Of a DNA stretch of 64,000 nt, positions 2,991-31,915 are shown in pieces. Within the stretch, counting starts at the first letter, position 1. Each line of letters starts with the position of its first letter. The DNA is from Marchantia polymorpha subsp. ruderalis (taxonomy: Eukaryota; Streptophyta; Marchantiopsida; Marchantiales; Marchantiaceae), in NCBI GenBank assembly GCA_037833965.1, contig AP031356.1:5726501-5790500 (forward strand). The letters run 5' to 3'. The position numbers were made by a program, and so were the translations under genes. The notes beneath the pieces were generated by a model that did no database searches, was not told the origin of the DNA, and saw nothing but the letters and a program-made list of their open reading frames with translations.

Positions 2991-3369
2991 TGTGGTAACC
3001 CACTTTTTGCTTTTGTGCGGAATTTAAAACAATTTTGGAAAACAGTACCGCAGCAGCCGTGTAAATGGTGATCGGTACATTTAAATAGAGTGAAAATGGA
3101 TAATCGCGGATTTCGCAGGATCTCGTAGAATCCAGAAGTTGGGCGCAATGTCCGAAACAGGCGCCGACCTGAACAATCGATTCTGAAGGAGTTCTCCTTC
3201 AGCGCAAGGCGCATAATACGCCTTCGGCGCTAGAGAGATCCCGCAGAGTTTATGCAATTCACAACGCCTCGACTTGCACAGGGTTTTGTTGGAAAGAGCT
3301 CGACGTGCTCGTTCTAACGAGCCCAAGACCGCCTAGAACGGATGAGGACTCAGGGAGTTGTGACTGTCG

Positions 3370-4020
3370 GAAGATGCAACGAAGAGCGCCTACGCATAGG
3401 CGGAAGGAGTTCGTCGTCGGCGGGAAGTCCACCGGGAATTCCACCTACACATAGGCGGAAGGAATTCGCCTGCACGTAGGCACTTCGCCATCGGCGGAAT
3501 ATCCGCCTTCGGCCCTAGAAGTTTGCCTTTGGGGGTGAAGCTCGTACGGCGCCTACGGCGCCAACGCATCAAGACTAGGTAAGTACCAAAGGAGTAGCGA
3601 ATCCGTACGGTCCGCCTTCGGCTCAACGCCTACGGCGGAACGGACGGATGCGCCCTCGGCAGGACGGGACTCCGGAGGCGAGGGCGCCTACGGAGAGACG
3701 AGAGAGATTGACAGACGAGACGAAATCTGTTGACCGCGGTCAACGCCTTCGGCACAGTCGCCTTCGGCGCTGCGCCTACGGTGATGCACCTACGCCGACG
3801 GACATCTTCGACGCTTGTGGTCAGCGCCTATGCACAGGCGGATGGAGTTTGGAGCCGGCGGGAAGTCCGCCGGGAAATCCGTCTTTGGCGGAAGAAGTTC
3901 GCCCTCGGCGGAGCGTGCAGAGGAACGCCTTCGGCTTGCGGGATCGATGCGAGTCGGAGTACGAATGCGAGTAGCGCGTCGGCGAGAAAGACGCCTTCGG
4001 CGCTGCGCGACCATGGCCGC
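3370..4020 (+). repeat. Micro-palindrome array in the leader of copy B
   Basis: This has the same two motif types as the array at 500-1210: CGCCTTCGGCG and CGCCTRYGCRYAGGCG variants. Copies are scattered at irregular spacing across the leader just upstream of the ORF. Confidence 0.75.
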
Positions 4021-4428
4021 GACGAAGTACGCTGGCGGAGTTCAAATTGACATTTTGAGCGTGCGAGTGCGCGCGACGGCGGAGCGTGAAGCCGCCCGTG
4101 CGAGAGGAGGGCCGTTACACCTCTGAGCCGGCGCAGCCATCAAGTGAGTCAACATTCACGACCGAGCATGACATCCAGCGAGCGGAGAACGGACACTTCA
4201 TTCTTGAATTTGCGATTTCAATTTCTTGTGCGAGCTGCGCGCGTCCACCTTCTAGCCGAGAGACATTTCAGACACCACCGCGGAGAGAGTCACACAGCGA
4301 CAAAGAGAGAATTGAGTGCGTTACAGTCGGAATCGAGAGAGATTAAAGTTTGCAGGAGAATCGAAGTAGTGAGCAAGAAGCTTGAGGGTAGCGGAGGAAG
4401 GTTCACGAAATTGAATTTCAAGAACGCG

Positions 4429-6842
4429 ATGTCGAAGTCCACTCAACTGCGGATGGTCCCACTCAAGCTTCCGCAGGTTGGGTTGCGTGCTTTTCAGGAC
4501 CGGCTGATTGCAGTAAAACTCGATTTCCTGTTGTGGGGATGGAATGACGTGTGCTCGGACATGGTGCGCAAATGACAAAGGGAGGGACACCAACCTACGC
4601 GCGGATTCCGACCGCACGTAGATCGTTGGACTGTCCAAGATTGGGGACAAGTACTGGGGAGATGTGCAGGCAAGGACGGGTTCCTTCTATTTGATAGTGA
4701 GAGCGTCAAGGTGTCGAAGGCGGAAGAAGCCTCCTTCGTGGAATTGTTCAAGAGAGAGAAGTCCACCAAGAACGGGTACAGGACCCGTGACTACAAGGAT
4801 CGCTTCCGTAGAAACGTAGCGATGGCACTTCTGCAACTCTTGCAGCCGCACCGAACAACGTACATCACTTCTTGGCAAGTGTCTTTTGTGGAGCTCACAT
4901 TGGCAGGAGCTCCGGTTCACTGGTCGCGTATCTTGCATAGGGTAACGCGGCAGCATGCGTTTGAGGAGAGGGGAGGAATGATCAATCATCTCTCCCCCTT
5001 CTTGATAAACTTTTATCGGTCGATGGGTTGCTTAACCGCAACCGAGCGTATTCAGTTTCCGCTGTTGTCACTCGACAATCCCGGGAGATATGTGCGGGAT
5101 AACGAGGTCGACTTCGACGCGGAGGACACTCCGACTTCCACTCCACCGGCTCAATAGGATGCGGGGAGAGACGCATCCGCAGCGCGAGTGTCGCGGAAGC
5201 GGAGATGGAGGGAGGAACCGGAGAAAGAGCCACATCGAGACTCGATGGCTCTCAAACGGAAGCGGCCACTGGAAGAAATTTGCAGTCGGCCGGAGCAGAA
5301 AGTGCGCCGGCTTGTATTACCTGCAAGTAGCGCAGAGACGGCACGGGCCCCCGGAGAGGAGGAGACCCCATCCTCGGAGGAGGACGGGAATACACAGACA
5401 GCAGAGGGGTCAGCGGACCTCCCTACGCCGAAGGCACGAACGCCCTCGGCGGAAGTGAGACGACCTTCGGGTCAAGAGCGACAACACGCGGCACGGATGA
5501 GTGTGCCACCTACGGATAGGCAACTCCTTGCGCTTAGGCGAGCGTCTACGCATAGGCGAGCCTCGCCTTCGGTGCAGCGCAGGAAAGGAAAGGAGCCGGC
5601 GGAAGATCCGCCTTCGGCTCAAAGGCCTTTCGGGCAAGGTCCTTCAATGGTGAGACCGCCGGGAAATGCGCCTTCGGCGCAAGGGCCTTCGGGCCACCGA
5701 GTTACAAGTAGGGAGCCGGCGGGGAACGCGCCCTCGGCGGGAAGTCCGCCGGAAGGTGCGCCTTCGGCAAAAAGGCCTTCGGGCCATCATGCGAGCCGCC
5801 TTTGGCTCAACCGCCTTCGGCGGAAGCGCCGCTGACAATAGCGCCTACGCATAGGCAGGACGCATCCTTGGAGCAGGATCTAATGAAGGAGCGGGACCTA
5901 ACGGAGGAGCAGATTGTCTGTCAGCAGGAGGAAATGTGTGTGTGCGATGCACAATTGCACTCCGCGCAGACACCTTCCGCACGATCGCCTTCGGTAGTGG
6001 ACACCTTCGGCGATGAGAAGTTAGCAGAAGCCGGACAGGCGGGCGATGTGAATTTGGCACAACCAAATTCTCCCACCGCCTTGGACATTCTGGCAGGGAG
6101 CAGCGAGGCTGCAGCAGCAACAGTGGTGGCAGACGACGCAGACGCGGACCCCCGCCATCCTGGGTCCTACGTCGAATTAGTGAGAAGGCGAACCCGCACT
6201 AAAGTCCACACCAGCAAGTTGTTGGCCCGTGTGGATCAGGAACTTAAGGATCTGCGGGAGAGGCATGATTGCCTGTGGGGCCACCTCAATCTCACTAAGA
6301 AGGTGTACAAAGCTCTCGACAAGACGAAGGACGAGAAGCTGAAAGATTTTGCCAAGGAGAAGGCTAAGCTCGCAGAGGAGCTGGATTCTGAGCAGGCTCA
6401 AAATTGAACTTTGTTAGAGGAGCTCGTGCGACAGACACGGTTGTTAGAGCAGTGTCAGCTCGCACGGCGGGCGGATGAAGAATTAATCCGCAAATTGCAA
6501 TCCGAGTGCGGAGAATTGAGAGCGCAGCGTGTGGAGGCCGAATTGCAGTTGGTTGTAGTTGAAGACGATCGCCGGCGGGAGGCGGATCGCACGAAGGAAG
6601 AGTTGGCGAGGCGAGTCAACCATTGTCTCAGAGGTTACGTCCACTTGGAAGTGGCGGCGCAGGAGAATCTCACACTGCGCGAGTTAGAGCTTCGTGCGAT
6701 GGGTTTGTTGTCAGGAGACAGTCGGAGCCGGCGGCGAGTGGCGAAGAAACTGGATTCGTTTCTGTCGAAGTCGCAAGACACCATGGCCACTCTCGAGACG
6801 GAGGTTTCTGCGGTGTTGCGGCGGTTGGGACTGCGCAGTTGA
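4429..6842 (+). pseudogene. Gag-like coiled-coil ORF of copy B, broken
   Basis: The reading starts at ATG 4429 (MSKSTQLRMVPLKLP). Parts in order: the N-terminal globular domain (FLLWGWN, DRWTVQDW, FLLFDSESVK, NGYRTRDYKDRFRRNVAM, TSWQVSFVE, INHLSPFLINFYRSMG), an acidic stretch, the Pro/Ser/Ala linker (about 5430-5860), PGSYVELVRRRT (about 6160), a long coiled coil (about 6190-6660), and a tail ending LRRLGLRS with TGA at 6840-6842. Stops at 4573 (Trp to TGA), 5155 (CAG to TAG) and 6405, and one frameshift near 5800-5835, break it. The reading between the breaks still fits the family, so loss is fairly recent. Confidence 0.8.
5430..5860 (+). repeat. Micro-palindrome array in the coding linker of B
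   Basis: It is almost the same sequence as 2480-2910 in copy A. It encodes repeated PSA/PSG units through the CCTTCGG motif and ends with the CCTACGCATAGGCA unit. Confidence 0.75.
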
Positions 6843-6986
6843 GCAGAAGACTGGCAGGGTAGGGAGTTAGTGCGCGGCAGTCCGTCGCGTAGAAGGCGAA
6901 GCACAGGTTCTGCGGAGTGTAGTGTAGCGTGGTTCCGTGCAGGCGCGTAGCGTAGTGCAGTGTACTGTTAGTTAGGACTTAGAAGG

Positions 6987-6994
6987 TATAAAAT
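6987..6994 (+). promoter_or_regulatory. Conserved TATA-like box of copy B
   Basis: TATAAAAT lies about 145 bp after the ORF and about 970 bp before the 3' end. D has TATAAAG at the matching place (minus strand, 12608-12614), E has AATAAAAGG (24922-24930) and F has AATAAAG (22204-22210). It could be a promoter (U3/R border of an LTR) or a 3'-end processing signal; the sequence does not decide. Confidence 0.45.
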
Positions 6995-7299
6995 AGTTCC
7001 AGGCGTCTTGCTTTGAGATTCTTCCAATTTCGGAAGTGCAGATCAGGAACTCATTTTCTCTGCGTGTTTGTGTCCTTAGTTCTGTCATCACGCAAGAGGA
7101 GCTACAACTTGGCGTTCCGCATTTTGTAGCTGAAGGCCTTCGGCCGAATGTTCAGAGCTAGTACACTGGTTAGAGACTTGAGTAGTTCGGATCTACACCT
7201 GCGGGTGATTGCCGATGCGCAGAGCCCGTTACTAGTTAGATACTTGAACAGTTCCCCCTTACACTTTCGAGTGATTGTTCATGATTGTACTCCTTCGGG

Positions 7300-7870
7300 A
7301 TTTTTCCCCTGAATGCCAAAGTGAAGTTTTGCTACTTCGAGTAAGCCTTGGTTGTAATTCAGGTTACGCTGCAGCAGGTGCCTTCCATGCAACCCCTGTA
7401 GTATTTCTGGGAATGACAAGTGCCTAAGTATTCAAACTCTTCAATAGACTGTTATGGTGTGTTACTGGATCGTTTCTCAGCTGAGTCTCTTAGTGAGACC
7501 TGTGTTCTCTGCGCGTTTTGTGAGTTGAGTGTGTTGTTCACCGCGTGTGAGTGACTTTGATCCAAAGTAGGAAGTCCAATCCAGGTTCCCTGTGCTAGCA
7601 GAAACTAGTGGAAGGGTTGTAAAAGCCGGAGTTGGGAGTCACTACCCGCAGATTCGCTGAGTGTATTCGTGAGAGACATTTCCCCTGGAATCTTAAGTAG
7701 AGGTCCTAACCGACCTCTGAGTTGTGTTTCTATAGTTTCAGGTGTGTGTGTGTGTTGAGTGAACTACGCTGCACTCTGCGACCTCCGAGTGAGCTCCGAG
7801 TGAACACTTGCAGTATTTCTGGGAGTGATAGTCGCCTGAGAATTCAAACTCTTCAATAGTCTGTTAAATG
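7300..7870 (+). repeat. Diverged tandem duplication in the 3' part of copy B
   Basis: Two units about 412 bp apart each contain TTTCCCCTGRAT, then GTATTTCTGGGARTGA, then TTCAAACTCTTCAATAG (second boxes at 7401 and 7813). Copy D carries the same duplication on the minus strand (about 11,740-12,300). E and F carry the last box only once. Confidence 0.6.
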
Positions 7871-7962
7871 TGACACTTTGTACTCTGTGTGTTGCCTCGG
7901 TCCTTGTGGGTTTGACCTTTCTACCACTATATTGCAGTTTTAGCCTTTGGTGGGTTATTACA

Positions 7963-11642: not shown

Positions 11643-11738
11643 TGTAATAAACCACTAAAGGCTAAAACTGCAATATAGTGGTAGAAAGGTCGAACCCACA
11701 GGGACAGAGGAACACACAGGGTACAAAGTGTCACATTT

Positions 11739-12300
11739 AATAGACTATTGAGGAGTTTGAATTCTCAGGCGACTGTCACTTCCAGAAATACTGCAAGTGT
11801 CCACTCGGAGCGCACTCGGAGGTCGCACAGTGCAGCGTAACACACACACACACACGTGAAACTACAGAACCACAACCCAGAGATCCGTTAGGACCTCTGC
11901 TCAAGATTTCAAGGGGAAGGTCTCTCAAGAGTGCACTCAGCGAAGCTGCGGGTAGTGACTCCAAACTCCGGCTTTTACAACACTTCCGCTAGCTTGCTGC
12001 TAGCGTAGGAAACCCGGTTTGGACTACCTACTTCGGATCGAAGTCACTCATACGCGGTGAACAACACTCTCAACTCACAAAACGCGCAGAGAACACAGGT
12101 CCGCACTGAAGGACTCACTGAGAAACATTCCAGTAACACACCATAACAGTCTATTGAAGAGTTTGAATTCTCAGGCACTTGTCATTCCCAGAAATACTAC
12201 AGGGGTTACCCCAAAGGCACTTGCTGCAGCGTAACCTGAATTTACAACCAAGGCTTACACGAAGTAACAAAACTTCACTTTGGCATTCAGGGGAAAAATC
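11739..12300 (-). repeat. Diverged tandem duplication in the 3' part of copy D
   Basis: Two copies of the box with TTCAAACTCWTCAATAG and TATTTCTGGRA occur about 400 bp apart, matching the duplication in copy B (7300-7870). Confidence 0.6.
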
Positions 12301-12650
12301 CCGAAGAAGTACAACCAGGAACAAACACTCGAAGGTGTAGGGGCGAAACTATTCAAGTATCTAACTAGTCACTGGCTCTGAGCATCGGCAGTCACCCGCA
12401 GGTGTAGATCCAAACTACTCAAGTCTCTAACCAATGCACTAGCTCTGAACATTCGGCCGAAGGCCTTAGGCTACAAAATGCGGAACGCCAAGTTGTAGCT
12501 CCTCTTGCGTGGTGACCGAACGAAGGACACAAACACGCAGAGAAAATGAGTTCCTGATCTGCACTTCTGATGTTGGGAAAGATCCCAAGGCAAAACGCCT
12601 TGAACTACTTTATACCTTCTAAATCCTAACTAGCACTACACTGCACTACG

Positions 12651-15416
12651 CTACACGCCGGCACGGAACCACGCTACACTACACTCCGCAGAACCTGTGC
12701 TTCGCCTCCTGCGCGACGGACTGCCGCGCACTAACTCCCTACCCTGCCAGTCTTCCGCTCGACTGCGCAGTCCCAAACGCTGCAACGTCGCGGACACCTC
12801 CACCTCGAGGGTGGACATGGTATCCCGTGCCTTCGACAGAAAAGAGTCTAACTTCTTCGCCACCTTCCGCCGACTCCTACTGTCACCTGTCAACAACCCG
12901 GCTGCACGAAGCTCTAACTCACGCAGTGTGAGTTTCTCCTACGCCGCCACTTCCCAGTGGGCGTAGCCCTTGAGACAGTGGGCGACACCCCTCGCCATCC
13001 CCTCCTTTATGCGATCTGCCTCTCGCCTGCGATCATCTTCAATTACCACCAACTGCGATTCGGCCTCCGCACGCTGCGCTCTCAATTCCCCGCACTCCGA
13101 CTGTAGCCTGCGGATTAAATCCTCATCCGCCTGTCGTGCAAGCTGACACTCCGCCAACAACCGCGTCTGTCGCACGAGCTCCTCTGACAGAATCTGATTC
13201 TGAGTTTTCTGAGAAATCAATTCTTCCGTGGTCTTCACCACATCCCTGGTGAGCTCTTCTAGTCTCTCCTTCTTCATCTTGTCGAGGGTGTGCGATTTCC
13301 GCACAAGGTTGTACTGACCCCATAAACAGTCATGCTTCTCCCTCAATTCCTTCAGCTCCTGGTCCACCCTAGCTAGTAGCTTGCTGGTGTGGACTTTAGT
13401 GCAAGTCCGCCTGCGCACTAATTCGATGTAGGATCCCGGCTGGAGTGGATCGGCGTATTTATCAAATTTGCGATCCAAGTACTTCAGCAACGGTATTACC
13501 TGCTCAGAGAGCGCCGCCGCCGGCGCTCCAACAATTTCCTCCTCCTCCTCCTCGGTATCTCCTGACCCCGACATTGCTTCTGTGGAGCCTCCGTCATCAT
13601 CATCCGAGGGAAGGATTTCAGTCGCCATTGATAATGTTGGCGACTGACCCGAGTGGGGCTGCACGTCGTCTACAAGTGCTGCCTCCGAAGGCACTCCCGC
13701 AGCTTCGCTGTTCCCCGCTAAAATGTCCAAGGCGGTGGGTGAATGTGGCCGTGCTACATCCCCATCCCCCGCCTGTCGATCGTCGACTGTGTCCTCTTCG
13801 CCGCCGACGTCCGCCGCCGAAGGCGATCGAGCGGAGTGTGTCTGCGCGGGGTGTAATTGCGCATCGCGCACCCGAATTTCGTCCCGCGGACAGACAGTCC
13901 GCTCCACCGTTAGGTCCTGCTCCCTCGATCGGTCCTACGCGAGGGTTGTGTCTGGCCTGTGCGCAAGCGCAAATACCGGCGTCTTGTCCGCCGCAGGCGC
14001 AGCGCCAAAGGCGTCTATCGCCGAAGGCGCATCTACCGGCGGATTACCCGCCGAAGGTGCGGTCTCCGCACGCTCCCTGCTCACATCTCGTTGACCCAAA
14101 GGCCCTGGCGCCAAAGGCGCAAATCGCGGCGCGTTGTACGCCGGAGGGTCTGGTCCCGAAGGCCCTTGATCCGTAGACGGATCTTCCGCCGGCTCCTTCC
14201 CCTTCCTACGTTGGACCGGGGGTGAATCCTGCCTGTGCGCAGGCGAACGCCTGTGCGTAGGCGGACTTTCTTTGCCTACGCGTAGGCGGAGGTCCACGTC
14301 CGCTTGGGGTCGCCTTTCCGTTGAAGCTCGCCTGTGCGCAGGCGGAACACTCGTCCGCATCGCACGTGGTAACTCCGGAGGCCCTTGGCCCGAAGGCCGC
14401 CTCTCGTCCGTCGGAGGTGCAGCGTGGTCCGTCGCTCTTGCAGACGTCCGCGCTCCCTCGGTTCTCCCCGGCGACGCACTTCCTTTCTCCGTGGCGATCG
14501 TCGCCGTGTCCGCGCTGCTGGCTGGTAACACAAGCCTGCGCGCCTTGTGCTTCGGCCGGGTGCACACTTCGTGCAATGGCCGTTGTCGAATGGGAGCAGT
14601 GGGTTCTCGATGCTGCTCCTCTTCAGACTCCTCCTTCCATCAACGCTTCCGCGGCACTCTTGCTGCGGGTGTGTTTCTTCCCTCGTCCCTCCGCCTCGGT
14701 GGAGTAGAAGCTGGTGACTCCTCTGCGTCGGTGTCGACCTCGTTATCCCGCACATACTTCCCGGGATGGTCGACGGACAATGGCGGAAAGCGAGCAAGCT
14801 CCGCCGCGGTCAAACAATTTCGCTGTCGATAAAAATTGATCAAGAAAGGGGAGAGGTGATTGAGAGTTCCCCCCTTCTCCTCAAACGCGTGCTGCCGCAT
14901 CACTCTGTGCAGGATGTTCGCCAAGTGAATTGGAGCTCCCTTGATGATGAGCTCCACAAAAGAAACCTGCCACAAGGTGATGTAGCAGGCGCGGTGTGGC
15001 TGCAGTAATTGCAGCAGCGCCGTTGCCAAAGTTCGGCGGAAGCGATCTTTGTAGTCACGGGTCTTGTACCCATTCTTGGTAGACCTCTCCCGCTTGAACA
15101 ACTCCACAAATTGCGCCTCGTCCTACTTCGACACCTTGACGCTCTCACTATCAAAGAGGAGGTGCCCTTCGATGCCAGCACACCTCCCTAATGCATGCGC
15201 CCAATCTTGGACGGTCCACCGATCGACGTGCGAACGCAATCCGCGCGAAGGGGGTCGCTGTGGCTCCAGCCACTCGCGCACCATATCCACACAGATGTAA
15301 TTCCATCCCCACAGCAAGAAATCGAGCTTTCTTCCAATCAGCCGTTCCTCGTAGGCGCGCAACCCGCTCTGTGGAAGCCGGAGCGGCAGCATCCGCAATC
15401 GGTTCAGCTTCGACAT
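12651..15416 (-). pseudogene. Gag-like coiled-coil ORF of copy D, four stops and no frameshift
   Basis: The reading starts at ATG 15416 (MSKLNRLRMLPLRLP) and stays in one frame for about 886 codons to the family stop position (12759-12761). There TGA has become CGA, so the open frame runs on to 12651. Parts: N-terminal domain (residues 1 to about 245), Pro/Ser/Ala linker (about 300-490), LLKYLDRKFDKYA and PGSYIELVRRRT (about 640-665), coiled coil (about 670-830), and a tail with VAKKLDSFLSKA and LQRLGL. In-frame stops lie at 15123, 14640, 13935 and 12939. Three are TAG where paralogous copies have CAG; the fourth is TGA where paralogues have AGA. The lack of frameshifts suggests recent activity or selection on the frame. 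Confidence 0.8.
13810..14420 (-). repeat. Micro-palindrome array in the coding linker of D
   Basis: Seen on the + strand as GCCGAAGGCG and CGCCTGTGCGCAGGCG units. On the coding strand they give PSA, AHRQ and RLRTG-type repeats between about residues 300 and 490. Confidence 0.7.
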
Positions 15417-15839
15417 TGCGTTCTTGGAATTCGCTTGCTCGCTAGTTCTCTCTCTGCTCCGCTCGAGCTCCTTGCTCCCTCTGCAAACTCTAATCTCACT
15501 CAATTCCAAATCGCGCGCACTCAATTCTCTCTCAATCAACAAGTAATCTTCTGCGCGGCGATGTTTGGAATTCTTAGCAGCTAGCAGATGGACGCGCGCA
15601 ACTCGCACTAGAAAATGGAATCGCGAATTCAAGAATGGGGCGCCCTCCGTCTCCCGGTCGAAGGTCATGGTCGGCTCTTGGTCGTGAGGGTCGAATCACT
15701 TGATGGCCGCGCCGGCTCTACGCTAAAACGGTCTCCGCTCTCACGCGCGGCTTCACGCTCCGCCGACGCTAATTTAACTCACACGCTTGAATTGGCGAAT
15801 TTGAACTCCGCGAGCGTACTACGCCGCGGACATGGGTGC

Positions 15840-16400
15840 GCAGCGCCGAGGGCGGATTTTCCGCCTTGCGCGGTACACTCGTTCGTACCGCTCCTCGGCC
15901 AATCCCCCTCTGCCGAAGGCGATCGTCCGCGCATCGGACAAAAGTTAAACTCCCGCCTGTGCGTAGGCGGAATCCCCGGCGGAATCTCCGCCGGCGCGGA
16001 ACTTCACCCGCCTGTGCATAGGCGCTCGCCTGCGCGTAGGCAAATTCCGTCCGTACAATCCGTACAGTTTTTACTACTCCGGCGGTTCCTCGCCCGTCCG
16101 TGCTGTTGCGCTGGCGCGGCAGGCGCCGTACAATTTCTACCTCCGAAGGCGCATTTCTAGGGCCGAAGGCGGATTTCCCGCCGACGGCTTAGCGCCTGTG
16201 CGCAGGCGACCGCCTGTGCGTAGGCAAACTTCGCTCGTCCGCCTGGGCAGAGGTTTCCTCGCCTGTGCGTAGGCGACATTCGCGCCTACGTCAAAACCCT
16301 ATTTCGCCTATGCGTAGGCGAACTGCTTTCGTCCGCGCATAGGACAAAACTTTCTTCGCCTGTGCGCAGGCGGAAAGCTGAGTATCTTGCGACCTTCATA
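15840..16400 (-). repeat. Micro-palindrome array in the leader of D
   Basis: The array is dense in CGCCTGTGCGTAGGCG and GCCGAAGGCG units. It is the counterpart of 500-1210 in copy A. Confidence 0.75.
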
Positions 16401-16786
16401 ACTCCCGGAGTCCTCATCCGTTTGTGGCGTTCTTAGGCTCGTTGGAATCAACGCGTCGAGCTCTTTCCAACAAGACCCTAACTAAGTCAAGGCGTTTGGG
16501 GATTGACCCAATTCTGAAGGATTCTTCTAGCGCCGAAGGCGCAGCGCCGAAGGCGGATTTTGCGCCTTGCGCCGAAGGGGTTATACCTTCAGAGCCCGCA
16601 TGGAGGGTGGTGTCCGTCCCTGACATTGCACCCTACTCCTGGATTCTACGAGTTTCCTCGAGAATCTCTGCGATCTTCCGAATTCACTCTGTTTTGATGC
16701 ACCGAAGGCTATTTACACTGCTGCCGCGGTACAGTTTTCCAAAAATGTTTTAATTTCCTCAAAAATACCAAAAGTGGGGTACCACA

Positions 16787-17870: not shown

Positions 17871-18005
17871 TGTGGTGCCTAGTTTTTTAGTTTTTCTTAA
17901 AAAATCAACAAAACTAAGAGATATTTTTTAGAAAGTAGTTTTAGAGTTAGAATGAGCAACTCCTTAGGAGAAACGATAGAATTAGTTAGAATTCGTCTAC
18001 GTCAT

Positions 18006-18790
18006 GTAAGACCAGATATTGCATGTGTGAAATAAAACTAGAATTAGCCAATGACTTAATCATGGATGGTTAAATGGTTAGGATAGTTATGACTAAATCT
18101 AGCTAGTTATGACTAAGTCTATCTAGTTTAGCTATAATGTCTACACTTGGCGGAATAACTAGAGAAGTTCTAGAAGATTTGAGTGAGCACTTCTATTTTG
18201 TCTTGTACAAAAGTCTAGATTCCAAGAAAAAAGACTTTTGAACTTCATGTTTAGTTTTGATTGGTTTGACTAAAGTAAGGAGTAATCTATTGCTTATACT
18301 AAGTCTAATATTGACTTAGTGGAAAGTGGAAGTTCTAGAAGTTGGAAAGGCACAAATGGCATGTCGCCACCTCAATCTAGGGATTAGTAAACATCTAGAA
18401 GGTTTAGGGGGCCAATGGCATGTTGCCACATATTGATAATTAGTCAACCTTACTATGGTTTCTCTTCGTAAAAGTAAGTTAGATAGAAATTACCATTTGT
18501 TACTATGGTAAACTCTCTAGTATATATAGAGAGGTAGGGAAGAGCCTCTCAAGCAAGTTTGAAGAGCTCATATGTAGAGACTTATTTCATATATGAAAAA
18601 GTGATGAATTTTAAGTACCTTGGAGTGTCGATGAGTGTGTGAGTTGGAGTGATACCTTGAGAGATTGTGTGAGAGGGTGTTTGGGCTATGAGTGTGATGC
18701 GGAATCCTAGTCTTCTAGAACCATGATGAGCTACCGAAAAGCCATCTGAGGTAAATCTGAGTGAGAGTCATCCCGGAGGTTGCAGGACCG
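18006..18790 (+). repeat. Long inverted repeat, left arm (pairs with about 23,335-24,098)
   Basis: The leader of E recurs in inverted orientation at about 23,335-24,098. Landmarks are GTAAGACCRGATATTGCATG at one end and CCCGGAGGTTGCAGG at the other. The arms are about 4.5 kb apart and enclose copy F. Transcription through both arms would give a foldback RNA. Confidence 0.75.
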
Positions 18791-18956
18791 GAAAGAAGTT
18801 TGAATGGCGACACCTTCAATTCACACGAGTTGGGAAAACCGTTGCGACAGCGAGGTATACCCAAAGGAATGAGAGTTTGGTGCCTACATTCCCCGAACAC
18901 ATTATCGCAATTGACATGAGATTGGAGTGCGGAAGCTCGAGCGAAAGAAAGCAGCT

Positions 18957-19199
18957 ATGGCGCGTCGGATACGATTATCCGCTCTAAAAGTTCCCGATGC
19001 AGGAATGCGAGCTTATCGTTGCGAATTAATCCTCGTGAATACGGACTTTTTGCTTTGGGGTTGGAATTGAGCGAGAGCGGCGATAGTGCAAGAGTGGGAT
19101 AAGGGTGATTTATCGAAGCCACCAAGTTATCGAGGAAATTCCAAGACGTGGCAAATTTGGGATTGGAAGAAAGTCCTAGGACGTTGCGCAAGTGACGAA
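18957..19199 (+). pseudogene. Gag-like ORF of copy E, first segment
   Basis: The ATG at 18957 starts MARRIRLSALKVPDAGMRAY. The motif FLLWGWN is followed directly by a TGA, then the frame continues through WQIWDWKKVLGRCASDE to the insertion point of F. After F and its duplicated ACGAA, the same frame resumes with GNLSFDSESVKVTQ at 22747. The join proves that F was inserted into this ORF. Confidence 0.8.
19195..19199. repeat. Target-site duplication of copy F, left (ACGAA)
   Basis: ACGAA directly precedes the TGTGGGG start of F and is repeated perfectly at 22742-22746 after its ATTACA end. It corresponds to the Asp-Glu codons in the ORF of E. Confidence 0.9.
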
Positions 19200-19623
19200 T
19201 GTGGGGCCTACTTTTTCGTTTTTCTTTAAAAATTAACAAAAACATAAACATATGTGTGTAGAAGATAGTTATATAAGTTTGAAAGAGTAGATTTATAGAG
19301 TTATGATAAGATTCGTTAGAATTCGTCTACGTCTGAAGATCTTCGGATCTTCGCGTCTTCGGCGCAGCCTTTTTAGTACGCACAAAGGAGTTGAGTCTTC
19401 GGCGAAGACATTGGAATCAATTTCAAATCATGCAACGAATCGGACGAGGTTCGCACGCGTCGAGAGTTCTACGAGGCACAGGAGAAGGTAATGTTAGGGC
19501 TTCAAGGGTAAAGGCAGTAGGAGGAGACTACGCACCGACATTGCGATATCGAGCAAGAACGATCGAGAGCGAGAGGAATTGCAATCGAGCCAACCCGCGA
19601 TCAACGAAGGGCAAATTGAATAC

Positions 19624-22108
19624 ATGGCGCCCAAGAAAAGTGAGAAGGTGAGGAAATTGGTTCCCTTGAAGGTGCCGTATGAGGAATTGAGACCCTTCAG
19701 ACACGAGTTGAGGGAGCTGCGGCTAGAATTCCTTCTATGGAATTGGAATTGCGTCTCAGCGAGTATCTGGAAGGAGGTTATGGACAAGAGCGCGACCGAG
19801 GGCGAAGAGCTCCGCGGTAATCTCATGTTGTGGACCATCGAGCATTGGACGAAAGTAATGGGACCGTGTGCGGGAAGCGACGGAGACCTTCTGTTTGACA
19901 AGAATAGCGTAGGACTTACGCGCGTCGAGGAATTCTCTTACGGGCCTCTCTTCGAGACTGGAAGACAGGGAACGAATGGATGGAAGATTGTTGATTATAA
20001 GAAATCCGAAGAGAATGGCGATCGCGTTTGGGATCATGCACATCTTACGGCCAGCGCGCACGACTTGTGTGACGGCCTGGCAGGTGGGATTTGTCGAACG
20101 CATTTTGAAGGGACAGCGCGTACATTGGGCAAGGATCTTTTATGATCTTGTCTGGGTGAATGCGTTTGGTCGATGGACGAGATCTATGACCAATCATCTT
20201 ACCCCCTTTCTAGTGCATTTCTATCGAGGAATGGGATTGCTTACGAGGGAGGAGGAGAAACGATTTCCAAGGGAGCGGGAGAGCTTTACAGTGGAGTCCA
20301 GTGAAGGGACCGAAGACGAGAATCAATCTCCTGCAATTCCAACACACACTACCGCTCGAGGACCAGTGCAGGTGGACGTGGTTCCAAGGCAGGAGCAACC
20401 AGAGAGACGGGTGGCAAAGAAAAGGAAGGTCGTAAGCGATGATGAGGAGGAATTGGCCCACACGGTAAGAAGGATGGATATGGATGTGAGTGGATCCAGA
20501 TAGCACAGAGCTCGCGCAAGACCAAAGAAGAGGGCAAAATGGAGGATGGTGACAGTTGAAGTGTCAGATAGCAGTGTGGAGAAGACGGTGGCACCAATTT
20601 TGAACACATCCGAAGTCGCAATTAGCGAGGTAATGCGATCTGTGGAGTTAGGGGTACCTTCGGAGGCGTCAATCAAAGATCCGGCAGATATACCGGCAGA
20701 ACCTTTGAACGAGGGAACGGAATTGGTAAGTCCGATTTCTTTGTCTTCGGAGCGGACACGGTCTGCGCAAGGCGAAGGGACACCCCAGATGAAGATGAAC
20801 GAGGACTTGGAGAAGGAGTTTACCTTGAGCGAGGAGATTCTGGAACAGGTTGTCGCAAGGGTAGGAGGGACGGAGGTGGAAGCCGAGGGCATTACACTGC
20901 CGACGTCTCCTGTGGAAGAGGTGAGACCCGAAGAAGGAAAGAAGACTTCGGGCGAAGAGGTGAAGACATTGGAAGTTACATTTCTTGAATTCTTGCAGGA
21001 TAGTGTAGTAACATTGTTGAAGTACTTGGACGGGAAGAGAAGGAAGTATGTTGTATCAAAGGAGCCAGGATTCTATGTTCAGATGATCAGGAACAGAACG
21101 AAGCTCAAGAGAGCAGTTGTAGTAAAGAGGTAGTGGAATTTCACGACTGCATTGGCACGGGAGCGAGCTGCAACCTTGTCAACCGAGTGCGCGGCAGTGA
21201 AGGCAACGTTGCGGGAGCAAGACGCCCAGCTTCGAGAGAAGGAAACGGAGTGTGAAGTGCTGCAGCTGAATCTAGAGAAGGAATCATGACGTTGTCCAGA
21301 GTTGGAAGAGACCTGCGAAGAACTTCGTACCTCTAATGAGAAAGCCCAGAAGGTAACAGTGGATTTGATGGCGAGGTTGAAGAAATCCAAGGAAGCTTAC
21401 GATGCAGTAGTCAAAAGGGCGGAGCGATTGATCACGACAGCGGAGAAGCGAGAGAAGAAGCATGTCGAAGACCTTGCTACATTTGAAGCCCGAAGAGCCG
21501 AAGAAGCTCGCATCGCCGAAGAACTTCGGGGCAAGCTCGCAGGTACGAAGACGGCGGAGGAAGATCTTCGTAGGAAAATTTCGGAGATTGACGCGAAGTA
21601 CGAAACAGAATTCCGACGTGCGGAGGAGCTATCAGCAAGTCTGTCGGCGGGAAATCAGACGCATGAAGACGAGTTGAAGGATTGGGCCAAGAAATTGGCA
21701 GAGTACGAGTCGGCCAAGTCTTCGGAGGTCGAATGTAGATTAAAGGTTGAATCTGACTGTCGACGGTTACGGGAGCAGTTAGAGAAGTTGGAGATGAGAT
21801 CGGAAGAGTTGCAAAGGAGAATGAAAAAGGCAGAGGATGCCTATCGTCAGCTGCGGGAGGATTCAACCGACGTGTTGAGATTGCGGTTAGAGAAGTGCCT
21901 GAACGGGTTCTCGATGTGGGGATTGGATTCGGTGAAGTGGTTGAAACTGGATCTGCTCGAGCGACGGCTGATGAGTGCGAAGTCCAGCGGATCCGAAGGA
22001 CACAAACAGATTGTAGAGTTAGTTAATTCATTTTCAGAGGAATTGAATGAGGCGCGCCAGAATGTAGAAGTTGAGATTGTAAACGTGTTGCGTAGATTAG
22101 GAGTCTAG
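19624..22108 (+). pseudogene. Gag-like coiled-coil ORF of copy F, lightly broken
   Basis: The start MAPKKSEKVRKLVPLKVP at 19624 fits the family start. The N-terminal domain has FLLWNWN in place of FLLWGWN, then TIEHWTKVMGPCAG and DLLFDKNSV; after one frameshift near 20,010 it continues ILRPARTTCVTAWQVGFVER and HLTPFLVHFYRGMG. There follow an acidic, Lys-rich linker without PSA repeats, TLLKYLDGKRRKY and PGFYVQMIRNRTK (about 21,010-21,100), a long coiled coil (about 21,150-21,900) and a tail ending VLRRLGV with TAG at 22106-22108. Stops at 20501, 21131 and 21287 interrupt it. The total is about 828 codons. Confidence 0.8.
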
Positions 22109-22203
22109 AGTAGTTCAGACGATGCTGTAACCGTTACATCGGACGGCACAGCCCTTGAGGTCGATTCGCCCCAGGCGGTTGATATCCCAGAGTTGCCATT
22201 GTG

Positions 22204-22233
22204 AATAAAGAGGCCCAAGGCTCTTTCCTTGGG
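22204..22233 (+). promoter_or_regulatory. AATAAA signal plus hairpin in copy F
   Basis: AATAAAG is followed within 4 bp by CCCAAGG-CTCTTT-CCTTGGG and then a T-rich run. E has the same layout at 24922-24950 (CCAAGGC-ATTG-GCCTTGG), and B and D have TATAAA there. The spacing suggests either a poly(A) signal or a TATA/R hairpin. Confidence 0.5.
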
Positions 22234-22741
22234 GGGCTTTTCTGTCAATTTGCTTGTCTTGACTCTCAGTCTGTCTTCGTTGTGTGTCCTTGTGCTGGTG
22301 TGTGGTCCAGACATTGAGCATGGTGCGCTCTTGTTTGTCAAAGTTATCGCAATAGGAGTTGTGAATATTCGGCCTTGATGTCTTGGGTAGCCTAGGGTTA
22401 CCGCGGGATTTAAGCAAGTTCGAGTCTGAGTATTCGGGTTAGTGTGTTGAGATGTATGCAGTGCTGGGAAGTTTTCCCCATGAAATATAAGTGTGAGATC
22501 GCTTGCGATTCTTGCAGGTTGTGTTTGGAAAAGGTTCAGGTTGTGAGTACGGTTTTGCACTACCCTGTGAGTCTTCGGCTCTAGCTGAGTAGTGTCTTCT
22601 GGGAGTAGCATTGGCCTAAGAAGTAAAACTTTGCAATAGAATGCTATCTTGTGACAAATCGTGACTTTTGTGTTTGTTTCTGTCCTCGTGAGATCGGATC
22701 TATACCATTATGTTCCATTTTGGTATTTGTACGTTATTACA

Positions 22742-22746
22742 ACGAA
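22742..22746. repeat. Target-site duplication of copy F, right (ACGAA)
   Basis: This is a perfect match to 19195-19199. The ORF of E resumes in frame directly after it. Confidence 0.9.
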
Positions 22747-23130
22747 GGCAACCTTTCCTTTGATAGTGAAAGTGTCAAGGTAACACAAGAGGAGGAAAAG
22801 GCCTACGCGATTTTGTTCAAGCACCCGCGCACCGGCAAGAATGGCTATCGTACCATCTGGTACCACGATTGGCTCAAAACAAATGTGGCGATGGCGTTAA
22901 TGCAAATTCTTAGACCGGCTCGAACTACTTACATGATGACTTGGCATGATGGGTTCGTGGAACGAGCATTGTGAGGAGATTATATTCATTGAGCACGCAT
23001 CTTCTGGACATCTACATGGAAACACATCGGGCTAGTTCCAGGAGGATCAGCCAGTTACTTGTCCCCATTCTTGGTTAATTTCTATCGGGTTATGAGATTG
23101 TTAACTGCTGAAGAAAGGAAGAATTCCCAG
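22747..23130 (+). pseudogene. Gag-like ORF of copy E, second segment
   Basis: It continues the ORF of E after F with LSFDSESVKVTQEEEKAY, NGYRTIWYHDWLKTNVAM, TTYMMTWHDGFVERAL, then two in-frame stops, and YLSPFLVNFYRVMRLLTAEE. The order and spacing match the N-terminal domain of B, C and D. The reading ends at about 23,130, where the sequence switches to an inverted piece of another copy. Confidence 0.75.
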
Positions 23131-24098
23131 CTGCGGAAGTCATTGCCACCTTTGCCCGCGTCTTATTACGCACTAGCTCCACGTAAGATCCGTTGGTGGT
23201 AGCTCTTGCATACTTCCTCCGCTTGTGGTCAAGGTACATGAGTAATGGAAGCACCTGCCCACACAGAACAGCGGCGGCACTAAGTACTTGCGATTGTGCC
23301 TCCTCCGCCAAAGGATCTTCGCCCTGCAACCTCCGGGCTGACTCTCACTGAGGTTTACCTCAGATGGCTTTTCGGTAGCTCATTATGATTCTAGAAGACT
23401 AGGATTCCGCATCATACTCATAACCTAAACACCCTCTCACACAATCTCTCAAGGTATCACTCCAATTCATACACTCATCGACACTCCAAGGTACTAAAAA
23501 TTTGTCACTCTTTCATATATGAAACAAGTCTCTACATATGAACTCTCCACACTTGCTTGAGAGGCTCTTCCCTACCTCTCTATATATACTACTTGAGAAT
23601 TTACCATAGTAACAAATGGTAATTTCTATCTAACTTACTTTTACAAAGATAAATCATAGTAAGGTTGACTAGTTATCAATATGTGGCAACATGCCATTGG
23701 CCCCCTAAACCTTCTAGATGTTTACTAATCCCTAGATTGAGGTGGCGACATGCCATTTGTGCCTTTCCCACTTCTAGAACTTCCACTTTCCACTAAGTCA
23801 ACATTAGACTTAGTCTCACCAATGAAATACTCCTTACTTTAGTCAAACCAATCAAAACTAAACATGAAGTTCAAAAGTCTTTTCTCTTGGAATCTAGACT
23901 TTTGTACAAGACAAAATAGAAGTGCTCACTCAAATCTTCTAGAGCTTCTCTAGTTATTCCGTCAAGTATAGACATTATAGCTAAACTAGCTAGACTTAGT
24001 CATAACTAGCTAGATTTAGTCATAACTATCTTAACCATGATTAACTCCTTGGCTAATTCTAGTTTTAATTCACACATGCAATATCCGGTCTTACAGCC
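23131..24098 (-). mobile_element. Inverted, internally deleted piece of another E-type copy
   Basis: Read on the minus strand, 24098 down to about 23,335 is the E-type leader. It jumps directly (after CCCGGAGGTTGCAGG) into the middle of the ORF: VLPLLMYLDHKRRKYA and GSYVELVRNKTRAKVAM (23329-23131). The leader-to-ORF jump is an internal deletion. The whole piece interrupts the + strand reading of E, whose coiled-coil part resumes at about 24,099. AGCCCGG occurs near both borders. Confidence 0.7.
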
Positions 24099-24904
24099 CG
24101 GCTCCAACATGACAAACCCGGTGGACGTCCGGAATCAGAGGAACAAAAGAACCAGACGACGGAGGCGAAGTACGAGGTACTTCGGAAGAAACTAGCCGAG
24201 GAAGTCGGAAAGCGGTGGTATTCGAAGAAGACCTGTGAGAGTCTTTGCGAGGATATTGAGAAGGCCAAGTGTGCAATAGTGGATCTCCGGAATAGGCTGG
24301 AGGCATCTCGGACCGCCTATAACGCTGATTTGCAGAGGGTGGACGAACTGTCGGCAGCATCGGAGAGGAAGGAATAGAAGCATGCAGCCGAGTTGGCAGC
24401 AAAGATGAAGGATTTGGCAGAGTGTGAAGCTGCTAGGATCTCGGACTTAGAATTGATAGAGAAGCTGGAGACTAAGCGTAGTGAGTTGAGGTCACAACGG
24501 ACGCAAGCCGAGGAGCAGTTATGCGAGATGGAGACGAGATTGTCGGAGGCAGAAGAGAAAGACCGGCAGTTATAAGAGCAGACAAATGACGCCTTGACCG
24601 TGAGGGTGAACCGATGCCTGCGAGGGTTTGAATTATGGCAGGTCGAGACGCATAAATGATTATAGTTACGAGATGTTGAGCGCCGTGCGACGGCAATGAT
24701 AGCGAGTAGTGTTAGTGGGCAGCGCCGGTTAGCCAAGAAGTTGGACGTGTTTCTTACAAGTTCGCGCGACGGGGTGTTGAACTTGGAATTGGAGCTAGCG
24801 GCCGTTTTGTAAAGGTTAGGTTTAGATCGGAAGTTAGAGGGGAAGGCAACCGCCGACTCTGCAGGTGTAGGACCTGTTCGGAGCTCGCATCAGAGTGAGT
24901 GATA
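24099..24904 (+). pseudogene. Coiled-coil part of the gag-like ORF of copy E
   Basis: A heptad-rich reading (EVLRKKLAEEVGKRW, DLRNRLEASRTAYN, ELAAKMKDLAECEAARI, RSELRSQRTQAEEQL) leads to the family tail LAKKLDVFLTSSRDGVLNL and a final RLGL. Several in-frame stops interrupt it (for example at about 24,375 and 24,573). It is the C-terminal half of the ORF whose N-terminal half lies at 18957-19199 and 22747-23130. Confidence 0.7.
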
Positions 24905-25449
24905 GTTCAGAGTTAGTTAGGAATAAAAGGGTCCAAGGCATTGGCCTTGGGAGACTTTTCTCGAATTTAGTTTTCTCTCAGTTTTGAAGTCTGCATTCTC
25001 CGCGCGTATGTGTATTGAGTGTTTTTGTCACCTCGCGAGAGTTACCTCGGTTTGTCGAAGATATTGCATCCGAAGTAGTAGCCCAATTTGAATGCTCTGA
25101 ATAGCGATTGACTAGAATCAAGATTTAGCAAGTTCGCAATTGGTAGTTGCGTGCAGATCCTGAGTGTACTCTTTGGGAATATTTCCCCCTTGAATACTAA
25201 GACAATGTCGCGATCGACCTCTGTGATGCTACATATGAGAATTTAAGGAGTGATGTGTGTATTACGATGCATTGCGTGTCCTTTGAGTTGAACACCTGCA
25301 GTACTTCTGGGAGTGACAGCGGCCTAAGAATTCAAACTCCTCAATAGAGTGTTAAATACGTGACATTTGGTACTCTTTGTGTTGTTTCTATCCTCGAGGT
25401 ATAGGATCTTTACCATTATGCTATATTTTGGTATTTATCTGTCATTAAA
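24905..25449 (+). mobile_element. 3' part of copy E
   Basis: It contains AATAAAAGG with the CCAAGGC/GCCTTGG hairpin, one GTACTTCTGGGAGTGA box (about 25,293) and the terminal GGTATTTATCTGTCATTAAA. The end compares with GTCATTACA in the copy at 63,508, so the last CA has become AA or is cut. It is followed immediately by copia pol sequence. Confidence 0.65.
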
Positions 25450-26777
25450 GATTTCTTCGATGTCTTTGCTCCGGTGCTAAAGTGATCCACTATACGAACA
25501 ATACTGCCATTAGCTGCAAACAAAAGATGGAAGATCCGTGAGCTTGATGTTAAAACAACCTTTTTAATGGCAAGCTAGATGAAGATGTATACATGTATGT
25601 GCCAAATGGTTTTGAGGCATCTCAAGAAAACATAGTGTGTAAACTTTTGAAAGCTTTCTATGGCCTTAGACAAGCACCAAAGGCCTGGTATGAAAGAATC
25701 TGTATCTACTTAACACAACATGGAGTCAAAAAGAGCATAGCTGATAGTAATATGTATCACTCAGTAGTTGATAGCAAGTATGCAATTATACTACTCTATG
25801 CTGATGATCTGTTGCTAGTTGGAGATATTCATGATGAACTCAACAGTATCAAAAATATTCTTACAAGGGAATTTGATATGACAATCTTGGGTGATGCAAA
25901 GTTGTATTTAGGTGCAAAACTGGAGCAAACAGAGATTGAAATCTACTTGCACCAACAAAATTTTATACTAAAACCCTTAGCAAAATTTCATTTAGATACC
26001 TGTAACTCAGTTTGCCTTTCCATGCCTCCTGGATTGCACCTTCAGAGTCATACTACAACACCTGAAGTTGATCCCACTTTATATAGATCATTGGTTGGTT
26101 CACTTCTCTTTGTCGCAACAATATCAAGACCTGATATTAGCTTTGCAGTAAATAGTGTGTGTAGATATATGCAGTATCCTCGAGAGACTCATTGGGCTGC
26201 TGCAAAATCAATTTGGCGCTATTTGAAAGGAATGATGAACTGGGGTCTTCATTTCAAGCAGCATGGAGGATAAAGGTATCATACCTTTGCTGAGTCTTAT
26301 TATGGGAGGGATGTCGACACTCGGAGATCTACAATCGGGATAGTTCGCAAACTTGGAAGTACTACAATTGATTGGAGTAGCAAGTTACAGTCTGCAGTAA
26401 CAATGTCAACTACTCAGGCTGAGTATCATGCACTTTCTGAAGCCGCAAAAGATATTGCTTTCTTGCGCTATTATTAGCAGAGTTAAGATTATGCTAAAAC
26501 ATAACAACTTTACTTTTTAGTATTTGCTACTAGTTTAATACATTACAACAAGTCATGTATTAAACTAGTAGCAAATCCTATTTTGCATGCGAGAACAAAG
26601 CATATAAGAATTCAACATCACTTTGTACGAAAAAGAGAACAGGCGAAAGATTTACAAGTCTATTATATACCCACAGATGAACAAGAAGCAGATTGCCCCA
26701 CTAAACATAGTAAAATTTACAAAAAATAAAGAAACTTTGGGAACAATAGAACTCCCACCTACAGGAGCGAGGGAGGG
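25450..26777 (+). pseudogene. Ty1/copia reverse transcriptase and RNase H remnant
   Basis: The reading begins inside the reverse transcriptase (DFFDVFAPVLK, then a stop), and an open frame from 25593 gives YVPNGFEASQENIVCKLLKA, LYGLRQAPKAWYE-type FYGLRQAPKAWYE, and the catalytic YADD at about 25,797-25,808. It continues TISRPDISFAVNSVCRYM and, after a stop, the RNase H part MSTTQAEYHALSEAAKDIAF. The end of RNase H (HARTKHIRIQHHFVR, YYIPTDEQEADCPTKHS) follows after a short palindromic insertion. Gag, protease and integrase are missing on the left, where copy E abuts. Confidence 0.85.
26522..26576. repeat. 22-bp perfect inverted duplication in the copia RNase H
   Basis: Arms 26522-26543 and 26555-26576 are exact reverse complements with an 11-nt loop. 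The right arm is coding (CIKLVANP in copia RNase H) and the left arm is an extra inverted copy inserted before it, as expected from template switching during replication. Confidence 0.85.
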
Positions 26778-31841: not shown

Positions 31842-31858
31842 GCTGGAATAGCTCAGTT

Positions 31859-31891
<33 letters not shown>

Positions 31892-31915
31892 GAGGTTCGA
31901 CCCCTCCTTCTAGCG
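31842..31915 (+). tRNA. tRNA-Asn (GTT)
   Basis: A 74-nt cloverleaf. The acceptor stem GCTGGAA pairs with TTCTAGC, with one G-U at the fourth pair and discriminator G. The D arm contains GCTCAGTTGGTTAGAGC. The anticodon stem TGTGG/CCACA closes the loop CTGTTAA, with GTT at 31876-31878. The T arm is GGAGG-TTCGACC-CCTCC. There is no intron and CCA is not encoded, as in nuclear tRNA genes. The internal A and B boxes are intact. T runs (TTTT at about 31,947 and TTTTT at about 31,954) downstream could end Pol III transcription. Confidence 0.95.

What the first reader, a model, noticed from the sequence alone, without database searches (positions are those of the whole stretch)
19195..22746. A mobile unit with TG...CA ends and a perfect 5-bp duplication, but no LTRs and no pol
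Copy F (TGTGGGGCC...GTTATTACA) is flanked by ACGAA on both sides, and removing it with one ACGAA restores the reading frame of the gag-like ORF of copy E across the site. This proves insertion and fixes both ends. The unit has no repeated ends and encodes only a coiled-coil protein. The ends and duplication length fit a retroviral-type integrase, but the structure fits no standard class. This is the best candidate for an undescribed element type.
Basis: partly seen in the sequence, partly recalled or inferred. Interest (0 to 1): 0.85.

Follow-up and report, generated by a model that had tools for sequence, protein, structure and literature searches.

The report
Solo retrotransposon LTR carrying a gene
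The piece is a lone long terminal repeat left behind by a Ty3/gypsy retrotransposon of a Marchantia-like liverwort, so it is not a new kind of mobile element, but unusually this repeat holds a long protein gene that natural selection preserved while the element was spreading.

Summary
In detail: 19200-22741 (3542 bp, TG...CA) sits between perfect ACGAA repeats, and joining the flanks restores the interrupted frame. Elsewhere in this genome copies of it continue into a primer-binding site matching the genome's own tRNA-Asp at 18 of 18 bases, then Gag, RT, RNase H and integrase, a purine tract and the start of a second LTR. Three elements have 6096-6125 bp between primer site and purine tract. 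F is thus a solo LTR of a roughly 13 kb non-chromoviral Ty3/gypsy element; 650 LTR 3' ends against 24 strict primer-site junctions suggest that solos dominate. What remains odd is the LTR: it contains a TATA-like box, an ORF of at least 750 codons unlike Gag, and a stop overlapping AATAAA. Variants shared between copies are 46.6% synonymous, private ones 29.8% (neutral expectation 29.0%), so the ORF was selected while the element spread and decayed afterwards. A related family of LTR-like units in the window encodes the same protein family. My searches showed no plant precedent for a selected gene inside an LTR; its function and expression are untested.

The parts
19200..22741 (+). Solo LTR (unit F), TG...CA, 3542 bp
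   Evidence: Ends and flanks; the same unit joined to PBS and PPT elsewhere
19195..19199 (.). Target-site duplication ACGAA, left
22742..22746 (.). Target-site duplication ACGAA, right
19270..19277 (+). TATA-like box TATATAAG (candidate promoter), LTR position 71
   Evidence: TATATAAG or TATATGAG at LTR position 70-72 in 18 of 18 complete units; no transcript data
19624..22204 (+). LTR gene, decayed in this copy: an ATG in the homologous frame at 19624, open pieces 19579-20145, 19976-20503, 20546-21133, 21302-22108, terminal TGA at 22202-22204 in frame with the last piece.
   Evidence: selection test. True start codon not determined
22204..22209 (+). AATAAA overlapping the stop codon (candidate poly(A) signal), followed by a short predicted hairpin
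   Evidence: AATAAA in 17 of 18 units, TGAATAAA in 16 of 18; hairpin folded for 3 units only
18787..19199 (+). Left half of host fragment E: piece of a related protein of the LTR-encoded family, interrupted by F
   Evidence: tblastn; frame join
22747..23118 (+). Right half of host fragment E
2991..7962 (+). Copy B: related ~5 kb TG...CA unit (TGTGGTAACCC...TTATTACA) encoding the same protein family; probable LTR of a sister family. Flanks GGAGC / TGAAC do not match
   Evidence: no junction with a primer site was seen for this family
11643..16786 (-). Copy D: related ~5 kb TG...CA unit, flanks GTCTT / GCCTT (4 of 5); probable LTR of the sister family

Best explanation
F is a solo LTR of a Ty3/gypsy (non-chromoviral) retrotransposon of a Marchantia-like genome. 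Shown: the family is LTR (3.5 kb) - about 17 bp spacer - PBS for tRNA-Asp - Gag - (protease-like stretch) RT-RH-IN - polypurine tract - LTR, and its single units carry 5-bp duplications. Inferred: a full element integrated at ACGAA inside an older fragment (E), and recombination between its two LTRs then removed the 6.1 kb interior plus one LTR. Shown: the LTR carries an ORF of at least 750 codons, without similarity to the family's Gag, kept under purifying selection while the family was spreading. Inferred: the LTR is a complete transcription unit (TATA-like box near position 71, ORF, stop overlapping AATAAA), so each element carries two copies of the gene and every solo LTR one; the protein is an accessory factor of the element (for example against silencing, or in copy-number control or particle function), not a host gene, because private variants of the sampled copies look neutral.
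For: Copies of the unit lead into TAGATAAATTTTTCTTTTGGCGCCGCTGCCGGGGA or close variants (5 loci; 24 junctions genome-wide, backward control 0). The PBS is the reverse complement of the 3' 18 bases (terminal A of CCA supplied) of a tRNA-Asp(GTC) gene of this genome. Gag PF03732 1.9e-12 and zf-CCHC; RVT_1, RT_RNaseH, Integrase_H2C2, rve. Integrase, then AAATGGGGAGAGGAGTA, then an F-like unit at L033 (unit 92% to F); the purine tract and LTR start also at L054, L056, L059, L062, four of four candidate elements; 30 such junctions, control 0. Element on C1: 5' LTR L025, interior L052, 3' LTR start L054; LTR starts 190 of 201 identical. PBS-to-PPT spacing 6096, 6111, 6125 bp in three elements. 650 LTR 3' ends, control 0. 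Target duplications. Selection: shared variants 189 of 406 synonymous, private 178 of 597, neutral expectation 0.29; p about 1e-7; absent in the other two forward frames.
Against: No element was seen with both LTRs complete and a matching duplication around the whole. Of four candidate elements, the outer end of the 5' LTR was seen in two and that of the 3' LTR in two; the one with both had flanks ATGAC / GGTCG. For the L025 element the 3' LTR end was not in the stretch fetched, and its 3' LTR was not among the 38 scored of 1243 candidates for the whole 5' LTR. LTR starts within an element are 93-95% alike against 92% to F. 5 of 14 complete units without PBS lack a perfect duplication (3 of these match 4 of 5). 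The antisense frame with the same wobble positions also shows the synonymous excess (p 3e-6). All pol frames read were broken or partial. No expression data. The protein has no Pfam match, no PDB relative, and its fold prediction failed.
Confidence: 0.92

Rival explanations
1. F is a one-LTR unit that transposes as such (for example by integration of a one-LTR form), not a remnant of LTR-LTR recombination.
For: 14 of 18 complete units show no primer site, 9 of them with perfect 5-bp duplications; 650 LTR 3' ends against 24 strict PBS junctions is a large excess, though the two patterns differ in strictness and interior starts had 90 first-look candidates.
Against: A solo LTR made by recombination has exactly the same anatomy and is the ordinary route (established knowledge). 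Junctions with interior are concentrated on the small contig C1 (13 of 24 PBS, 22 of 30 PPT junctions on 2.3% of the bases), as expected if recombination makes solos and C1 recombines little. Weak: LTR ends are themselves enriched on C1 (33 of the 100 exact ones listed).
Confidence: 0.05
2. The LTR reading frame is a passenger: a captured gene fragment without function for the element.
For: F's own copy is broken into at least four pieces; no Pfam domain in the longest frame; all named relatives found are Marchantia gene models.
Against: Shared variants are enriched for synonymous changes in this frame and the share rises with sharing (47%, 53%, 57% for at least 2, 3, 4 copies). Between the two families of units the protein is 39% identical over 279 codons with third positions less conserved (0.33) than first and second (0.52, 0.57).
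Confidence: 0.07
3. The LTR protein has been taken over by the host and solo LTRs persist as host genes.
For: Many M. polymorpha gene models encode parts of it (93 of 102 hits and 102 of 107 are so named, the rest unnamed); the LTR has promoter-like and poly(A)-like signals.
Against: Private variants of the 18 complete copies are 29.8% synonymous, the neutral expectation being 29.0%: these copies show no sign of being maintained. A single domesticated copy among the hundreds not sampled is not excluded.
Confidence: 0.05
4. A non-autonomous class such as TR-GAG or LARD (LTR element with only a gag-like ORF or none).
Against: The ORF lies inside the LTR, not between LTRs, and the family has its own gag and pol.
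Confidence: 0.01

Closest known systems
[not shown]
   Same: Gag, RT-RH-IN order, PBS for tRNA-Asp (non-chromoviruses use mainly tRNA-Ala, -Arg, -Asp, -Lys, -Trp: PMC6317226, passages read), 5-bp duplications, very long LTRs (up to about 5 kb reported there), no additional RNase H seen where looked
Solo LTRs
   Same: TG...CA, single unit, 5-bp duplication, apparently far more numerous than full elements
   Different: Carries a long selected reading frame with candidate promoter and poly(A) signal
Retroviral genes in or overlapping the LTR (MMTV sag, HIV nef, spumavirus accessory genes; recalled, no call)
   Same: Accessory, non-Gag-Pol protein encoded in LTR sequence
   Different: Those ORFs lie in or run into U3 of animal retroviruses; here an ORF of at least 750 codons occupies most of the LTR, probably in R, of a plant element; no sequence relation tested
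TR-GAG / LARD non-autonomous plant LTR elements (recalled, no call)
   Same: Only one gag-like ORF, or none, in the copy first seen
   Different: They have two LTRs around the interior; here the ORF is in the LTR and pol exists

Membership tests
LTR of a Ty3/gypsy retrotransposon | TG...CA ends and short target duplication | tested here: met
   9 of 14 complete units without PBS have a perfect 5-bp duplication
LTR of a Ty3/gypsy retrotransposon | Unit followed inside by a primer-binding site for a host tRNA | tested here: met
   24 junctions; 18 of 18 bases to one own tRNA-Asp(GTC) gene checked
LTR of a Ty3/gypsy retrotransposon | Unit preceded inside by a polypurine tract | tested here: met
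   AAATGGGGAGAGGAGTA then TGTGG; 30 junctions
LTR of a Ty3/gypsy retrotransposon | gag and pol with RT before IN (gypsy order, not copia) | tested here: met
   frames broken or partial in the copies read; protease read by eye only (no Pfam match)
LTR of a Ty3/gypsy retrotransposon | Same unit at both ends of one element | tested here: met
   Element on C1: complete 5' LTR L025, 3' LTR start L054 (190 of 201 identical); only the first 201 bp of the 3' LTR were read
LTR of a Ty3/gypsy retrotransposon | Target duplication around a full-length element | tested here: inconclusive
   One of four candidate elements had both outer flanks read: no match
Chromovirus clade | Chromodomain after integrase and, in most, tRNA-Met PBS | tested here: not met
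   No Pfam match in the integrase C-terminal ORF of L050, which ends about 95 bp before the LTR; PBS is tRNA-Asp
Tat with additional RNase H | aRH domain | tested here: inconclusive
   None found between RH and IN (L052) or between IN and LTR (L050); other positions were not searched
[not shown]
   No reference set at hand

The most novel reading that the evidence does not exclude
The LTR is a self-contained gene cassette. By keeping its accessory gene inside the LTR the element doubles it at every insertion and makes it survive solo-LTR formation, so hundreds of solo LTRs form, or formed, a genome-wide reservoir of a trans-acting protein that helps (or restrains) the remaining full elements. 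This would be a distinct life strategy for an LTR retrotransposon, shared by at least two families of such units in this genome.
Probability: 0.3. Interest if true: 0.8.

Novelty: new variant of a known kind. Interest (0 to 1): 0.55.

Why it matters
LTRs are usually treated as regulatory DNA. A selected reading frame of at least 750 codons within the LTR means that a solo LTR is not just a scar but a gene copy. That changes how such repeats are annotated (many M. polymorpha 'hypothetical proteins' match this LTR protein), how their age and silencing are read, and raises a testable question: what does an element gain by putting a gene where it is duplicated at each jump and survives the loss of gag-pol?

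Tried and rejected
Apparent 13-15 kb pairs from the first end searches (C8:16797k, C7:444k, C1:1180k) looked like LTR pairs but were single units interrupted by other sequence. Undescribed class, TR-GAG and LARD: set aside once PBS, gag and pol were found. The idea that the 0.78 kb inverted repeat around E (18004-18784 / 23323-24096) is the TIR pair of a DNA transposon: set aside, because among 40 scored copies of its outer end seven same-strand pairs lie 6.6-6.9 kb apart, as LTRs of another retrotransposon would. The AlphaFold model of the copy C protein (mean pLDDT 39) was not used for a fold search. The first tRNA pattern held one base too many and found nothing; corrected. PDB search by profile: 0 at E<=0.1. 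Literature: eight searches; no listing showed a plant LTR with a selected gene; this is absence from those listings only. PMC8775202 (outline and passages) uses 'protein-coding LTR' for 'protein-coding LTR-RTs'. PMC9985172 and PMC10508981 (passages): nothing on ORFs in LTRs in what I saw. Homology searches scored only the 7995 and 7996 candidates sharing most words, so relatives outside Marchantia may be missed. Two relatives carry precomputed Pfam labels PF19220 and PF24319, not followed.
Full report
What is there. The window lies in a 241 Mb, nine-contig genome. All named relatives of the LTR protein are Marchantia polymorpha subsp. ruderalis gene models (93 of 102 hits, 31 of 31, 102 of 107; the rest are unnamed), so the source is a Marchantia, probably M. 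polymorpha or close kin (inference). Unit F runs from 19200 to 22741, 3542 bp, TGTGGGGCC...GTTATTACA, flanked on both sides by ACGAA. Joining the flanks with one ACGAA gives an open stretch of 118 codons, and the protein of copy C matches on both sides of the site.

It is an LTR. The first 206 and last 162 bases were searched in the whole genome: 397 and 860 first-look candidates, 40 scored each. I fetched 40 stretches (L009-L048), chosen from those scored hits and so biased to copies close to F, and aligned F to them. Eighteen complete units, F included, were compared. Four of them (L018, L021, L025, L047) continue directly into TAGATAAATTTTTCTTTTGGCGCCGCTGCCGGGGA or a close variant (L047 has extra bases before the primer site) and lack a duplication; a fifth junction, in L046, belongs to a related unit. 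Genome-wide, 24 places join the LTR end to this stretch (up to 2 mismatches), against 0 for the pattern read backwards. The 18 bases TGGCGCCGCTGCCGGGGA are the exact reverse complement of the mature 3' end (terminal A of CCA supplied) of a tRNA-Asp(GTC) gene of this same genome; one gene was checked with ARAGORN, and its 3' end occurs exactly at 4 places and with one mismatch at 16 more. This is a primer-binding site.

Behind it lies a gypsy interior. L049 carries Retrotrans_gag (E 1.9e-12) and CCHC knuckles. L052, from the interior of the element whose 5' LTR is L025, carries in broken frames a protease-like stretch (by eye, no Pfam match), RVT_1, RT_RNaseH, Integrase_H2C2 and rve in that order. 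At L033 an integrase ORF (rve 7.6e-14) is followed by AAATGGGGAGAGGAGTA and then by an F-like unit of 92% identity. At the far end of the L025 element the same purine tract leads into TGTGGGGCCTACTTTTTCA, a second LTR, whose first 201 bases match the 5' LTR at 190; three other candidate elements show the same purine tract and LTR start. Thirty such 3' junctions exist (up to 3 mismatches), control 0. In three elements the primer site and the purine tract lie 6096, 6111 and 6125 bp apart on one strand; three further pairs within 20 kb lie 3163, 9508 and 16052 bp apart. The family is therefore LTR-PBS-gag-pol-PPT-LTR, about 13 kb (inferred from 3.54 + 6.1 + 3.54), Ty3/gypsy by domain order. No chromodomain and no additional RNase H were seen in the pieces searched. 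M. polymorpha gene models that match the LTR protein and also carry RNase H, integrase or Gag domains (P0126, P0093, P0157, P0203, P0208) agree with this order in another assembly.

What is missing. I saw no element with both LTRs complete and a duplication around the whole. Of four candidate elements the outer end of the 5' LTR was seen in two (L025, L058) and that of the 3' LTR in two (L057, L060); the one with both had non-matching flanks, ATGAC and GGTCG. The 3' LTR of the L025 element was not among the 38 scored of 1243 candidates for its 5' LTR.

F is a solo LTR. Of the 14 complete units not followed by a primer site, 9 have a perfect 5-bp duplication and 12 match at 4 or 5 of 5; 182 cross-pairings gave none with 4 or more. 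Two interrupted units (L038, L045) also have perfect ones. LTR 3' ends number 650 (up to 3 mismatches; control 0); the count includes 5' LTRs, 3' LTRs and truncated copies, and the 24 PBS junctions are a stricter count (90 first-look candidates for the interior start), so 'solos dominate' is a reasonable reading and not a census. Junctions with the interior cluster on C1, a 5.6 Mb contig holding 2.3% of the bases: 13 of 24 and 22 of 30. LTR ends are enriched there too, 33 of the 100 exact ones listed (only 100 of 650 places were listed). If C1 is a sex chromosome (size and recalled Marchantia karyotype, not tested), accumulation of elements and weaker loss of interiors there would both fit.

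What is unusual. The LTR contains a gene. L030 has one open frame of 750 codons, and L019 one of 652 that ends exactly at the TGA of TGAATAAA. A TATA-like box lies at LTR position 70-72 in 18 of 18 units, AATAAA near position 3000 in 17 of 18, and TGAATAAA in 16 of 18. In 2249 aligned sites of this frame, variants found in a single copy are 178 of 597 synonymous (29.8%), equal to the expectation computed from the mutation spectrum of the non-coding ends of the LTR (29.0%); variants shared by two or more copies are 189 of 406 synonymous (46.6%), p about 1e-7. The share rises to 53% and 57% for variants in at least three and four copies. Forward frames +1 and +2 show nothing (p 0.57, 0.18); of the three antisense frames only the one with the same wobble positions does (p 3e-6; the others 0.83 and 0.19). 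So the frame was protected while the family was spreading, and inserted copies decayed afterwards. Between this family and copy C of the window the protein is 39% identical over 279 codons, with codon-position identities 0.52, 0.57, 0.33. Copies B and D of the window are themselves TG...CA units of about 5 kb; D has flanks matching at 4 of 5, B's do not match, and no primer site was seen for that family, so calling them LTRs is inference. The LTR protein has no Pfam match at E<=0.01, no BLASTP similarity to the family's Gag (best E 0.54 and 3.9 for single comparisons), and no PDB relative by profile (copy C family); the attempted fold of copy C was poor.

Mechanism. Shown: insertion with 5-bp duplication, single-unit state, LTR anatomy of the family, past selection on the LTR frame. 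Inferred: with a promoter at the start of the LTR and a poly(A) signal after the stop, transcription from any LTR can give a complete mRNA, while genomic RNA must read through that signal in the 5' LTR; R would then be about 2.9 kb and contain the gene. The protein is most likely an element accessory factor. Which one is unknown.

Novelty. What remains is a Ty3/gypsy family, and probably a sister family, with a selected gene inside the LTR. [quoted passage not shown] my eight literature searches listed no plant precedent. Animal retroviral LTR genes are an analogy from memory.

Noticed in passing
window 18004-18784 and 23323-24096: Inverted pair of about 0.78 kb sequences (93% alike) around E; each starts TGTAAGACC. 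Among 40 scored copies of the outer 200 bp, seven same-strand pairs lie 6.6-6.9 kb apart, so they look like two LTRs of another retrotransposon in opposite orientation, not TIRs.
   Followed up: partly
window 17871-18003 and 24096-25447: Remains of another F-related LTR (75-77% to F at its start and end) in which the inverted pair, E and F seem to be nested.
   Followed up: partly
L030, L031, L035, L038: In several fetched loci an F-like unit sits inside or at the end of another F-like unit, as F sits in a fragment of a related protein; possible target preference, not tested against abundance.
   Followed up: no
contig C1 of G000: 13 of 24 PBS junctions, 22 of 30 PPT junctions and 33 of the 100 listed exact LTR ends lie on this 5.6 Mb contig (2.3% of the genome), perhaps a sex chromosome.
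   Followed up: partly
window 25593-26273: Copia-type reverse transcriptase fragment, RVT_2 E 1.2e-29.
   Followed up: no
window 37504-39176, minus strand: Two ORFs that read like a split basic helix-loop-helix transcription factor gene (motif recalled, no search run; ORFs).
   Followed up: no
window 27241-28320: 359-codon ORF, not identified.
   Followed up: no
window 31842-31915: tRNA-Asn (GTT) gene.
   Followed up: no
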